Below, one piece after another: positions 16,517 through 20,727 of a stretch of DNA of 54,318 bases; the first letter of the stretch is position 1; each line of letters opens with the position of its first letter. Under the pieces are notes generated by a model. It worked only from the letters and a program-made list of their open reading frames with translations. It searched no databases and was not told the DNA's origin. The position numbers and the translations under genes are program-made. The DNA comes from Desulfarculaceae bacterium (lineage in GTDB: Bacteria; Desulfobacterota; Desulfarculia; Desulfarculales; Desulfarculaceae): contig JAMOVV010000038.1 in the NCBI GenBank assembly GCA_027067385.1, positions 1-54,318 of the forward strand. The letters are read 5' to 3'.

Positions 16517-17464
16517 ATGGACATTAGCCGACGTAAATTCTTTAAACTCACCGGCGGCGCCGCCGCCACCGGGGTGCTCAGCGCGGGACGGGCCCGGGCG
16601 GCCTCCCGGCCGCCGTCGCCGGAGGCCTACGGATGCCTGGTGGACACCACCTTGTGCGTGGGTTGCCGCCGCTGTGAGTCGGCCTGCAACCAGCGGCACC
16701 ACCTGCCCAAGCCGGCCGAGTCCTTCGACGAGCTCAGCGTCTTGGAAAAAGAACGCCGCATGGACGAGACCACCTACACCGTGGTCAACAAGTACTATCC
16801 CCGCAACATCGGCACCCTCAAGTGGCGGCAGCGTCCCACCTACGTCAAGTTCCAGTGCATGCACTGCAACGACCCCTCCTGCGTGTCGGCCTGCATCGTG
16901 GGGGCGCTGACCAAGACCAAGAGCGGGGCGGTGGTCTACGACGTGTCCAAGTGCATCGGCTGCCGCTACTGCATGGTGGCCTGTCCTTTCCAGGTGCCGG
17001 CCTACGAGTACAACCAGCCGCTCACGCCCCGGGTGCGCAAGTGCACCTTTTGTTTTGAATACGTCAGCAAGGGCGGCCTGCCGGCCTGCGCCCAGGTCTG
17101 CCCGCGCGAGGTCATGACCTTTGGCAAGCGTTCGGACCTGCTGAAGCTGGCCCGCTGGAAGATAAAGAGCAACCCGGGCAAATACGTCGACCACATCTAC
17201 GGTGAGCGCGAGGTAGGGGGTACTTCGTGGCTATATTTGGCCTCTGAACCCTTTAGCCATATTGGCTTCCCCCGTCTGACCGACAAGGCCCCCCCTCGCC
17301 TCACCGAGTCAATCCAGCACGCGGTAACCGGCTACCTGGCCCTGCCCTTGGCCCTGTACGCCGCCCTGGGCGGGGTGATGTGGTTCACTGGTTTCCACCG
17401 CAAACACAAGGGGCCGGAGCACGACACGCCCGATACCCCGGGCCGGCAGGGGGGTGAGTCATGA
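16517..17464 (+). CDS. Tat-exported 4Fe-4S ferredoxin subunit with C-terminal TM (HybA/HmcB-like)
   Basis: Twin-arginine SRRKFFKLTGG, four Cys clusters, C-terminal TM (YLALPLALYAALGGVMWFTGF). Confidence 0.9.
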   Translation: MDISRRKFFKLTGGAAATGVLSAGRARAASRPPSPEAYGCLVDTTLCVGCRRCESACNQRHHLPKPAESFDELSVLEKERRMDETTYTVVNKYYPRNIGTLKWRQRPTYVKFQCMHCNDPSCVSACIVGALTKTKSGAVVYDVSKCIGCRYCMVACPFQVPAYEYNQPLTPRVRKCTFCFEYVSKGGLPACAQVCPREVMTFGKRSDLLKLARWKIKSNPGKYVDHIYGEREVGGTSWLYLASEPFSHIGFPRLTDKAPPRLTESIQHAVTGYLALPLALYAALGGVMWFTGFHRKHKGPEHDTPDTPGRQGGES

Positions 17465-20400
17465 GCGTGCACGAAGAAGCCGCCCCGGTGGTGGATGAAA
17501 AATTCCTTACCCCGGGCACCATGGTCATGCTGGCCCTCATGGCCATCGGCGGGGCCTTTGCCGTGGCCCGTTTCGCCTTTGGCATCGGTTACGTCTCCAA
17601 CCTCAACAACCAGTATCCCTGGGGCATCTGGGTGGCCATTGACGTGGCCAGCGGGGTGGCCCTGGCCGCCGGCGGGTTCACCACCGGTCTTATCGCCTAC
17701 GTCTTTAACCGTGACGAGTACCACGCGGTGATCCGGCCGGCCCTGCTCACGGCCATGCTCGGCTACACCTTCGTGGTGCTGGGGCTGCTGTTGGATATCG
17801 GCCGCTACTGGAACATCACCAGCCCCCTGTTCAACCACAACCCCAACTCGGTGCTCTTTGAGGTGGCCATCTGCGTGATGATCTACCTGAACGTGCTCTA
17901 CATCGAGTTTCTACCCATCGTGGTGGAGCGCTTCAAGGGCCGGGTGAGCCTGCCGGGCTTCTTGGCCGGGCTCAACGACCTGGTGGAGAAGGTGCTAGAC
18001 ATCGCCGACCGCATTTTGAACAAGGTGATGTTCATCTTCATCATCGCCGGCATCGTGCTCTCCTGCCTGCACCAGTCATCCCTGGGGGCCCTGATGCTCA
18101 TCGCCCCCTTCAAGGTGCACCCCTTGTGGTACACCCCCATCTTGCCCCTGCTGTTTTTGCTAAGCGCCTTTGCCGCCGGCTATCCCATGGTGGTCTTCGA
18201 GTCCCTGCTGGTCTCCACCTCCTTCGGCCGCAAGCCGGAGATGGAGGTGCTTACCCCCCTGGCCCGCTACATGCCGGTGATGATGGGCATCTACCTGGCG
18301 GTGAAACTGGGCGACATGATCGTGCGCGGCACCTATGTCTATCTCCTGGACGGCACCTACCAGACCAACGCCTTCGTGGTGGAGATGCTCATCGGGGTTA
18401 TCCTGCCCTTTGTGCTGCTCTTGCTGCCGCGGGTGCGGCGTTCGCCGGGCTGGCTTTTCTTCGCCTCGGCGGTGTTCGTGCTGGGCATCCTGTTCAACCG
18501 CATCAACGTCTTCCTGGTGAGCTACACCCCGCCCTACAAGCTGGAGGCCTACTTCCCGGCCGTGGGCGAGATATTCATCACCGTGGGCCTGGTGGCCACC
18601 TTGATGTTCGCCTACCGGGTGATCGTCTTCATCTTCCCGGTGCTCGGCGCCCGTCCCAAGAAGATCTCCACCGCCGCGGTCATCCTGGCCGCCGGGTTGG
18701 TGCTGGGCGCGGCCGGCCCGGCGGCCGCGTCCCCGGCGGCGGCCGGGGCCAAGCGTCCCCTGCCCGTGGCTGCCCACCGGGTGCCCACCGTGGCCGACGC
18801 GCCCAAGCTCATCGTGATCAACCAGCCGCTGGTCAACCGCTACAGCGACCTTTTCGAGCCGGTGCGCTTCATGCACTCCAAGCACGCCGGGGTGTTGGGC
18901 GACTGCACCATCTGCCACCACCGCATGCCCCGCGAAGACGGCGACCGCTACGGCCGGCCGGTGACCATGGCCGACCTGCGCCGCCAGGGTAAGAAGCCGG
19001 TGGCCTGCGTGGTGTGCCACCAAAGACCCTTTGAGCCCAAGCGGCTGGTCGTCCCGGGGCTCAAGGGGGCCTACCACCGGCTCTGCATGGACTGCCACCG
19101 CGAGGCCGACCAGACCCCCCACCAGCGAGGGCCGATCATGTACAGCTCCATGGTGCGCGGCCCGGAGGTGCGCCCCCTGGACACCCGGGCCCCCACCGAT
19201 TGCCTGGCCTGCCACGCCAAGAAGGTGCCGGACCACAAGAAGTTGGTCAAGCTGCCGGCCGGGGCCGATGCCCTGGCGGTGACGGCCAACTGCCTCTCCT
19301 GCCACCAGAAGGAGGGCCAGGCCATCCTCAAGACCGCCCACTGGCGCTGGCACGGCCCCTCGCCCTTCACGGTGGGCCACGAGAAGCGGGTGGACCTGGG
19401 CAAGAGCCACGCCACCATGAACAATTTCTGCATCAGCGTGGTGAGCAACTGGCCCCGCTGCACCAGTTGCCACATCGGATACGGCTGGAAAGACGCCAAC
19501 TTCGATTTCAACGACATGACCAAGATCGACTGCCTGGTCTGCCACGACACCACCGGCACCTACAAGAAATCGCCGGCCGGGGCCGGGTTCCCGGCCAAGG
19601 GGGTGGACCTGGTGCGGGTGGCCCAGAACGTGGGGCGGCCCAGCCGGGCCACCTGCGGCATGAACTGCCACTTTGTGGGCGGCGGCGGCGACGCGGTGAA
19701 GCACGGCGACATGAGCTCGGCCCTGGCCAACCCCAGCCGCGAGCACGACGTGCACATGGGCACGGGCAAGCACGGCATGGGCTTCCGCTGCCAGGACTGC
19801 CACAAGACCCGCAGCCACATGATCAGCGGGCGCTCCATCTCGGTGCCGGCCACCGAAGGCGACCTGTCGTGCGAATACTGCCACACCGACCGGCCCCACG
19901 TGTCCCAGCCGCTTTTGGACTACCACCTCAACAAGCACACCAAGCACGTGGCCTGCCAGACCTGCCACATACCCATCTACTCCAAGAACAACCCCACCAA
20001 GGTCTACTGGGACTGGTCCACCGCCGGGCGCAACAGCAAGCCGGGCCGCGACAAGTACGGCATGCCCACCTATCATAAGAAGAAGGGCAGCTTCGTGTGG
20101 GTGGAGGCGGTCAAGCCCGAGTACCGCTGGTACAACGGCACCGTGAAGCGCTACCTCATGGGCGACCGCATCGATCCCTACCGGGTTACCGAGCTGACCA
20201 AACCGCAGGGCTCGATCAAGGACCCGTCCTCGCGCATCTATCCCTTCAAGGTGCACCGCGGCCGCCAGCCGGCCGACATGGACAACCGCTATCTCATCGC
20301 TCCCAAGCTGTGGGGCGGCTTCTGGAAGCACTGGGACTGGCAAAAGGCCGCCGCCGAGGGCATGAAGGCCGCCGGCCTGCCCTACAGCGGCAACCTGGGC

Positions 20401-20727
20401 TTTGTGGACACCATCATGTACTGGGGACTCACCCACGAGGTGATGCCCAAGCAAGACGCCCTGTCCTGCGCCGCCTGCCACGCCTCCCTGGCCCGGGCGC
20501 CCCACTGCGGCCTCTGCCACCAAAAGACCCCGGGGGTGGATTTCAAGAAGATGGCCTTCACCGGCATCGACTTTGCCGAGCAGGCCAAGAAGGGCCGGGA
20601 CGTGGGCCACTTGGTGGGCAAGAGCAACTACATCGACTACCGGGCCCTGGGTTACCCCGGCGACCCGGTGATAGTGGGCGGCCGGTTCCGCAACCTGCCC
20701 TTGCGCCGCCAGGCGGCCCAACCGTAA
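17461..20727 (+). CDS. NrfD/HybB-like integral membrane domain fused to multihaem cytochrome c (c3-like region plus octahaem tetrathionate reductase-like region)
   Basis: About 400 aa polytopic N-terminus (GIGYVSNLNNQYPWGIWVAIDVASGVALAAGGF); C-terminus with 12 CXXCH and one CX3CH; KIDCLVCHDTTGTYKK typical of OTR-family cytochromes. Confidence 0.92.
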   Translation: MSVHEEAAPVVDEKFLTPGTMVMLALMAIGGAFAVARFAFGIGYVSNLNNQYPWGIWVAIDVASGVALAAGGFTTGLIAYVFNRDEYHAVIRPALLTAMLGYTFVVLGLLLDIGRYWNITSPLFNHNPNSVLFEVAICVMIYLNVLYIEFLPIVVERFKGRVSLPGFLAGLNDLVEKVLDIADRILNKVMFIFIIAGIVLSCLHQSSLGALMLIAPFKVHPLWYTPILPLLFLLSAFAAGYPMVVFESLLVSTSFGRKPEMEVLTPLARYMPVMMGIYLAVKLGDMIVRGTYVYLLDGTYQTNAFVVEMLIGVILPFVLLLLPRVRRSPGWLFFASAVFVLGILFNRINVFLVSYTPPYKLEAYFPAVGEIFITVGLVATLMFAYRVIVFIFPVLGARPKKISTAAVILAAGLVLGAAGPAAASPAAAGAKRPLPVAAHRVPTVADAPKLIVINQPLVNRYSDLFEPVRFMHSKHAGVLGDCTICHHRMPREDGDRYGRPVTMADLRRQGKKPVACVVCHQRPFEPKRLVVPGLKGAYHRLCMDCHREADQTPHQRGPIMYSSMVRGPEVRPLDTRAPTDCLACHAKKVPDHKKLVKLPAGADALAVTANCLSCHQKEGQAILKTAHWRWHGPSPFTVGHEKRVDLGKSHATMNNFCISVVSNWPRCTSCHIGYGWKDANFDFNDMTKIDCLVCHDTTGTYKKSPAGAGFPAKGVDLVRVAQNVGRPSRATCGMNCHFVGGGGDAVKHGDMSSALANPSREHDVHMGTGKHGMGFRCQDCHKTRSHMISGRSISVPATEGDLSCEYCHTDRPHVSQPLLDYHLNKHTKHVACQTCHIPIYSKNNPTKVYWDWSTAGRNSKPGRDKYGMPTYHKKKGSFVWVEAVKPEYRWYNGTVKRYLMGDRIDPYRVTELTKPQGSIKDPSSRIYPFKVHRGRQPADMDNRYLIAPKLWGGFWKHWDWQKAAAEGMKAAGLPYSGNLGFVDTIMYWGLTHEVMPKQDALSCAACHASLARAPHCGLCHQKTPGVDFKKMAFTGIDFAEQAKKGRDVGHLVGKSNYIDYRALGYPGDPVIVGGRFRNLPLRRQAAQP

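What the first reader, a model, noticed from the sequence alone, without database searches (positions are those of the whole stretch)
17461..20727. NrfD/HybB membrane subunit fused in one 1088-aa chain to a 13-haem cytochrome
Residues ~1-400 are a polytopic NrfD/HybB-like quinone-interacting subunit. The remainder has 12 CXXCH plus one CX3CH motif: a front cluster of four resembling class III cytochrome c3, and a back part with octahaem tetrathionate reductase (OTR)-family sequence (KIDCLVCHDTTGTYKK, GGGGDAVKHGDM). In known modules these are normally separate proteins. The fusion would directly wire a quinone-pool subunit to an OTR-type reductase head in the periplasm.
Basis: partly seen in the sequence, partly recalled or inferred. 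Interest (0 to 1): 0.88.

Follow-up and report, generated by a model that had tools for sequence, protein, structure and literature searches.

The report
Fused quinol–multihaem sulfur-reductase gene
A sulfate-reducing bacterium and many of its relatives carry one gene that joins a membrane protein drawing electrons from quinol to a 13-haem cytochrome of the tetrathionate-reductase family; the joint still looks like a secretion signal, so the chain is probably cut in two after it is made.

Summary
ORF 17461-20727 encodes 1088 aa: an NrfD/HybB-type subunit, a tetrahaem c7/c3-like domain, an octahaem tetrathionate reductase (OTR) domain and one extra haem site (12 CXXCH, 1 CX3CH). It is not an assembly error: about 120 protein clusters share the architecture, and in an NrfD tree it forms one clade, mostly Desulfobacterota. 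A sister clade keeps two genes, mostly overlapping (ATGA).

The reading 'direct wire' is only partly supported. The junction is a preserved Sec signal peptide: basic n-region, old start Met in 112/118 homologs (Ile in the window), small-X-small site, low conservation, same place as the signal peptide of the split cytochromes. The product is therefore probably a polyprotein cut by signal peptidase; this is not shown. Electrons should in any case pass the HybA-like Fe-S subunit encoded next to it.

The operon (sigma-54 regulator; TusA – HybA-like – fusion – PhsA/PsrA-like Mo enzyme – PsrB-like Fe-S – rhodanese with two in-frame TGA) points to quinol-driven reduction of sulfur oxyanions. Some relatives lost OTR and keep the Mo enzyme; others have OTR without it nearby. 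Relatives carry TGA (probably Sec) at OTR Cys64. New variant of a known kind; function untested.

The parts
14557..15972 (-). Divergent PAS + sigma-54-interaction (AAA+) + Fis-HTH regulator
   Evidence: PF00158 234.7 bits, PF13426 PAS_9; same divergent position in many relatives of both clades
16207..16222 (+). Candidate sigma-54 -24/-12 promoter TGGCTCGCGCCTTGCA
   Evidence: 1 mismatch to consensus (such matches are not rare in the whole window); a TGGC/TTGC-type site lies upstream of tusA in 19 of 44 sequences (window counted twice), 2.5 expected
16255..16482 (+). TusA-like sulfur-carrier protein, 75 aa
   Evidence: PF01206 41.5 bits, cut-off 28.6; conserved directly upstream of hybA in both clades
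16517..17464 (+). HybA/HmcB-like periplasmic Fe-S subunit, Tat signal, four Cys quartets, C-terminal hydrophobic segment
   Evidence: HmcB 344.7 bits (below its cut-off 420), HybA 265.3 bits (cut-off 263); Cys positions; ATGA overlap with the fusion start
17461..20727 (+). The 1088-aa NrfD - tetrahaem - OTR - haem chain
17461..18657 (+). NrfD/HybB-type membrane domain, res 1-399; ten TM helices, both ends predicted on the cytoplasmic side
   Evidence: PF03916; loop charges; AF2 and Foldseek match to alternative complex III subunit C
18658..18735 (+). Internal Sec signal-peptide-like segment, res 400-425 (KKISTAAVILAAGLVLGAAGPAAA/SP), possible cut after A423; Ile402 (ATC) sits where 112/118 homologs have Met
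   Evidence: pLDDT below 50
18838..19230 (+). Tetrahaem c7/c3-like domain, res 460-590
   Evidence: PF14522, PF02085
19234..20493 (+). Octahaem OTR domain, res 592-1011
   Evidence: TIGR04315; 1SP3 458 bits; Foldseek 1sp3, TM 0.87 on target length
19429..19431 (+). Codon of C657, equivalent of OTR Cys64; TGA in 25 related loci
19699..19701 (+). Codon of K747, equivalent of OTR Lys153 (distal ligand of the active-site haem in the published structure)
20506..20520 (+). 13th haem site CGLCH, beyond the OTR domain
   Evidence: its Cys and His are invariant in A1
20762..23008 (+). PhsA/PsrA-type Mo-bisPGD catalytic subunit, Tat signal, Cys188 at the place of the Mo ligand
   Evidence: PhsA 557 bits (cut-off 694); T. 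thermophilus Psr 2VPW 388 bits with Cys aligned
23042..23674 (+). PsrB/TtrB-type Fe-S subunit, four Cys quartets, no Tat signal of its own
23801..24937 (+). Rhodanese lipoprotein with two in-frame TGA codons (24149, 24464), probably Sec, in YCQG(P/F)T-U-KLSH
   Evidence: SelB in the genome

Best explanation
The gene encodes the quinol-dehydrogenase membrane subunit and the 13-haem OTR-type cytochrome of one respiratory complex. It arose when two neighbouring, translationally coupled genes lost the stop codon between them. It is translated as one polyprotein. The former signal peptide (res 400-425) takes the cytochrome across the membrane and is probably cut by signal peptidase I, leaving a HybB-like subunit and a periplasmic 13-haem cytochrome in equal amounts. 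In the assembled complex menaquinol is oxidised at the NrfD subunit; electrons pass the HybA-like Fe-S protein to the tetrahaem domain, then to the OTR head and, through the PsrB-like Fe-S protein, to the Psr/Phs-type Mo enzyme. The probable reactions are reduction of tetrathionate (or another sulfur or nitrogen oxyanion) by OTR and of thiosulfate or polysulfide by the Mo enzyme, feeding sulfite to Dsr. Shown here: gene structure, homology, conservation, operon, loss and gain of heads. Inferred: cleavage, electron path, substrates.
For: Fusion real and conserved: more than 100 clusters, one clade of 44 in the NrfD tree at 100/99. Split sister clade, mostly with ATGA overlap, whose cytochromes begin with ordinary signal peptides. 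At the fused junction: Met in 112/118, basic residues before it, a small-X-small site followed by a polar residue in 115/118; majority-residue frequency 0.45 against 0.87 (NrfD) and 0.82 (OTR). No convincing Shine-Dalgarno at the usual distance from the internal Met, AGGAGA or AGGAGG before the true start; the window and other Desulfarculaceae have ATC or CTC there. AF2 gives ten TM helices and no confident eleventh at 398-432. OTR active-site equivalents C657 and K747 kept in 118/120 and 117/120. Sulfur context: TusA, PhsA-like Mo, Fe-S, rhodanese. OTR lost but Mo kept in G110, G145, G164; no Mo gene found next to OTR in L035, L039, L040, L046. Own genome has DsrA and SelB.
Against: The OTR substrate is uncertain; OTR also reduces nitrite and hydroxylamine in vitro (Atkinson 2007, cited in PMC4911364). 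Reverse flow (sulfur compound to quinone) is not excluded. No expression data.
Confidence: 0.55

Rival explanations
1. The chain stays in one piece: the ex-signal peptide becomes an eleventh TM helix (N-in, C-out) and tethers the 13-haem cytochrome to the quinol subunit.
For: Continuous ORF in a large clade; segment hydrophobic enough for a helix; loop charges place the NrfD C-terminus inside, as needed.
Against: Small-X-small site kept in 115/118, low conservation of the segment, match with signal peptides of split homologs; no confident TM helix in the model.
Confidence: 0.3
2. OTR here is not a tetrathionate reductase but reduces nitrite, hydroxylamine, another sulfur species or an unknown substrate; the complex detoxifies or scavenges rather than respires.
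For: OTR reduces nitrite and hydroxylamine in vitro (Atkinson 2007, cited); authors have proposed Otr as a possible nitrite reductase in Deferribacter.
Against: TusA, Psr/Phs-type Mo enzyme and rhodanese in the same operon; Sec/Cys exchange at Cys64 would fit sulfur-bond chemistry (inference).
Confidence: 0.3
3. The complex runs in the oxidative direction, passing electrons from a sulfur compound or a periplasmic c3-type pool to menaquinone (Hmc/Qrc-like).
For: NrfD and Fe-S subunits resemble HmcC/HmcB; the tetrahaem domain resembles c3/c7; Hmc and Qrc link periplasmic cytochromes to the membrane in sulfate reducers (family knowledge).
Against: The tetrathionate/thiosulfate couple lies well above menaquinone (family knowledge), which favours reduction; OTR active-site residues kept.
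Confidence: 0.2
4. Sequencing or assembly artefact (lost stop codon).
For: Split homologs exist.
Against: More than 100 fused clusters and about 40 fused loci from independent assemblies.
Confidence: 0.01

Closest known systems
Octahaem tetrathionate reductase of Shewanella oneidensis (1SP3, TIGR04315)
   Same: 432 residues align at 458 bits; eight haem sites; Lys153 and Cys64 equivalents kept; fold match TM 0.87 on target length
   Different: Shewanella OTR is a stand-alone 8-haem protein; here it follows NrfD and a tetrahaem domain, has CX3CH at haem 4 and a 13th haem
OTR + cytochrome b pair of Thermosulfurimonas dismutans (TDIS_1882/1883, PMC4911364)
   Same: OTR encoded beside a multi-TM 'cytochrome b' subunit, proposed to link it to the membrane
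   Different: Separate genes there, fused here. That TDIS_1883 is of the HybB/NrfD type is our inference; its sequence was not examined
Hmc complex (HmcA 16-haem, HmcB Fe-S, HmcC NrfD)
   Same: HmcB- and HmcC-like partners; c3/c7-type haem domain
   Different: All three fail the Hmc equivalog cut-offs; HmcA is replaced by tetrahaem + OTR
Alternative complex III (ActA-F)
   Same: NrfD subunit with Fe-S protein and multihaem cytochrome; ActC is the best fold match for the NrfD part
   Different: No sequence match in the PDB for the NrfD part; one NrfD, a Psr/Phs-type Mo subunit, an OTR head
Psr/Phs polysulfide-thiosulfate reductase
   Same: Mo subunit 388 bits to T. thermophilus Psr with the Mo-ligand Cys aligned; PsrB-like Fe-S
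   Different: No dedicated PsrC next to it; below the PhsA cut-off
Bradyrhizobium FbcH (cytochrome b/c1 polyprotein; from memory, no paper found)
   Same: Membrane quinol subunit and c-type cytochrome made as one chain with an internal signal peptide, then cut
   Different: Unrelated proteins; cleavage there is experimental, here inferred

Membership tests
OTR family (TIGR04315) | Curated score cut-off 375 bits | tested here: met
   534.8 bits
OTR family (TIGR04315) | Eight haem-attachment sites | tested here: met
   All eight align with 1SP3, one as CX3CH
OTR family (TIGR04315) | Lysine ligand of the active-site haem (Lys153) and nearby Cys64 | tested here: met
   K747 and C657; 117/120 and 118/120 in homologs
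OTR family (TIGR04315) | Tetrathionate reductase activity | not testable with these tools
   needs biochemistry
NrfD superfamily (PF03916) | Pfam cut-off 25.8 bits | tested here: met
   86.8 bits
NrfD superfamily (PF03916) | Polytopic fold, 8-10 TM helices | tested here: met
   Ten helices in AF2; ActC/ActF fold matches
HybB (NF008133) | Equivalog cut-off 450 bits | tested here: not met
   366.3 bits; HybB-like only
Hmc complex (HmcA/HmcB/HmcC) | Equivalog cut-offs | tested here: not met
   HmcA 65.5 of 400, HmcB 344.7 of 420, HmcC 286.2 of 550
PhsA thiosulfate reductase (NF012032) | Equivalog cut-off 694 bits | tested here: not met
   557 bits; Psr/Phs-type, substrate open
Signal-peptidase-processed polyprotein (FbcH-like) | Internal, cleaved signal peptide at the junction | tested here: inconclusive
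   Anatomy and homology fit; hydropathy and matrix scores do not discriminate; cleavage itself not testable here

The most novel reading that the evidence does not exclude
A modular menaquinol dehydrogenase with two exchangeable periplasmic heads (OTR cytochrome and Psr/Phs-type Mo enzyme) on one tetrahaem hub, made as a polyprotein that signal peptidase cuts, which would take tetrathionate through thiosulfate to sulfide plus sulfite in one complex; in relatives the OTR head uses selenocysteine at Cys64.
Probability: 0.3. Interest if true: 0.78.

Novelty: new variant of a known kind. Interest (0 to 1): 0.6.

Why it matters
How OTR-type cytochromes receive their electrons is, as far as I know, not settled. 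A gene that joins OTR to an NrfD quinol subunit, in an operon with the Fe-S relay, proposes a donor and makes it testable in cultured species (Desulfocarbo indianensis for the fused form, Desulfosarcina widdelii and D. alkanivorans for the split Sec form). If cleavage holds it would be another case, beside cytochrome b/c1 of Bradyrhizobium, of a quinol subunit and its c-type cytochrome made as one chain. The Sec/Cys exchange at Cys64 suggests that this residue is catalytically important.

Tried and rejected
Assembly artefact: rejected by the many fused homologs. Independent internal start at Met402: rejected as a general explanation; no convincing Shine-Dalgarno and a non-start codon in the window. 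A von Heijne matrix as proof of cleavage: rejected, no better than NrfD helices. Hydrophobic length and hydropathy do not discriminate. First AF2 model with 15 close sequences was useless (pLDDT 39.7). Folding-energy z-scores for SECIS gave no signal in a 54-nt window; the fixed 7-bp hairpin was seen by inspection and then counted. Sec-OTR as a wholly new selenoprotein: rejected, it is a row in the table of PMC13188914. Literature for an NrfD-OTR fusion: none found, but the library lacks most subscription journals. Papers on Auka, Acidobacteriota (26), Deferribacter (27), Desulfurivibrio (62), Caldithrix (63) and ANME partners (86) mention no such fusion in the passages searched. Rfam found nothing in the window.
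Full report
OBSERVATION. The ORF at 17461-20727 is intact and 1088 aa long. It contains an NrfD domain (PF03916), a tetrahaem c7/class III-like domain and an OTR-family domain that passes its curated cut-off by a wide margin. Residues 592-1023 align with Shewanella OTR 1SP3 at 458 bits. The 13 haem motifs divide as 4 + 8 + 1; the CX3CH is OTR haem 4, shared by 115 of 120 fused homologs. Counting along the alignment, 1SP3 residues K153 and C64 fall on query K747 and C657. That Lys153 is the distal ligand of the active-site haem is established knowledge (Mowat 2004, from memory), not tested here.

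NOT AN ARTEFACT. A search of 5.8 billion proteins returned more than 100 clusters with the same length and domain order at 66-77% identity. Sources name them 'Ni/Fe-hydrogenase cytochrome b subunit' or 'octaheme c-type cytochrome', so automatic names see one half each. In named genomes the fused gene occurs in Desulfobacterales, Desulfococcaceae, Desulfarculaceae (Desulfocarbo indianensis) and MAGs labelled SAR324 and others. In an NrfD tree of 94 rows the fused genes form one clade of 44 (100/99); the three rows in it scored as unfused (L069, L077, L081) end at contig edges. L094 is a separate NrfD-13-haem fusion in another branch. The window's genome is in the same family as G004, whose NrfD domain is identical to that of Desulfocarbo indianensis, so by inference it belongs to the Desulfarculaceae.

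HISTORY OF THE JUNCTION. A sister clade (Desulfosarcina widdelii, D. alkanivorans, Desulfatibacillum and others) has NrfD and a 13-haem cytochrome as two genes, mostly overlapping by ATGA, and the cytochrome starts with an ordinary-looking signal peptide. In the fused clade the NrfD end (FPVLGxxP) runs straight into K-K-M-S plus a hydrophobic stretch plus A-X-A and polar residues: the same kind of signal peptide in the same place, with Met in 112 of 118 where the old start would be. The window has ATC there. In relatives the internal codon lacks the AGGAGA/AGGAGG at normal spacing that precedes the real start. The segment is poorly conserved (0.45) between well conserved NrfD (0.87) and haem domains (0.80, 0.82), as is usual for cleaved signal peptides. 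A small-X-small site followed by a polar residue is present in 115 of 118. The AF2 model on an 89-row alignment (pLDDT 77.4) has ten TM helices and no confident helix at 398-432; loop charges put both NrfD ends inside, so the segment points outward as a signal peptide must. I conclude that cleavage is more likely than not. It is not shown: a von Heijne matrix, hydropathy and run length do not separate the junction from the NrfD helices.

OPERON. Upstream lies a divergent PAS-sigma-54 regulator and, in front of a TusA-like gene, a -24/-12 candidate; sites of this type precede tusA in 19 of 44 sequences against 2.5 expected (the window is counted twice, as window and as L001). The order regulator - tusA - hybA - NrfD - cytochrome is shared by members of both clades. 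Downstream in most of the fused clade come a Psr/Phs-type Mo subunit with the Mo-ligand Cys position kept, a PsrB-like Fe-S subunit without its own Tat signal and, in many, a rhodanese. The genome has DsrA, so sulfite can probably be used.

MODULARITY. Three loci nested in the fused clade (L006, L008, L053; L008 and L053 are near-identical and probably one genome) encode a 606-607 aa NrfD-tetrahaem chain that stops before OTR. These genomes show no OTR match at all (G110 98% and G145 96% complete), yet keep HybA and Mo and, in L053, Fe-S and rhodanese. Conversely L035, L039, L040 and L046 have OTR and no Mo gene within the sequence held. The tetrahaem domain therefore looks like a hub that can serve either head. 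This is an inference from gene content.

SELENOCYSTEINE. In 24 split rows and two fused rows of the OTR tree the Cys64 codon is a stop, TGA wherever its codon was read; the tree needs two changes. A perfect 7-bp hairpin GCAACGAG(G/T)CTCGTTGC follows at a fixed distance in 23 of 25 TGA loci and in 0 of 48 Cys loci. SelB is found over its cut-off in 12 of 14 genomes tested, which include Cys genomes. A 2026 review already lists the family as a GenBank-annotated selenoprotein without motif (PMC13188914). The mapping to Cys64 is ours. The window itself has Cys.

FUNCTION. Most likely quinol-driven reduction of sulfur oxyanions: OTR for tetrathionate (or a related species), Mo enzyme for thiosulfate or polysulfide. 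NrfD proteins carry no haem (family knowledge), so the HybA-like Fe-S protein is the expected relay; the fusion by itself does not create the wire. Direction, substrates and cleavage remain to be tested.

Noticed in passing
window 23801-24937 (+): Rhodanese lipoprotein with two in-frame TGA codons at the same motif (YCQG[P/F]T-U-KLSH); TGA at this motif also in L027, L028, L029, L033. Rhodanese selenoproteins with a UxxS motif are listed with one Sec in PMC13188914; this one would have two.
   Followed up: partly
L044, L046, L058, L060-L062, L064-L066, L068, L070, L072-L076, L078, L080, L082, L084, L085, L087-L089, L096: In-frame TGA at the OTR Cys64 codon, followed in 23 of 25 by a 7-bp SECIS-like hairpin; automatic annotation may split or truncate these genes.
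   Followed up: yes
L094:3345-5687: Independent fusion of an NrfD subunit with a different 13-haem cytochrome (780 aa), outside the fused clade.
   Followed up: no
L071, L079: Split 13-haem OTR cytochromes with Leu at the Cys64 position; both loci hold further 8-haem cytochrome genes.
   Followed up: no
L047, L007/L054: Early-branching fused members with the PsrB-like gene directly after the fusion but a distant (25%) Mo subunit upstream (L047, L054); L007/L054 has a frame break within OTR.
   Followed up: no
window 16255-16482 (+): TusA-like protein with TPLC where TusA usually has a CPxP motif.
   Followed up: partly
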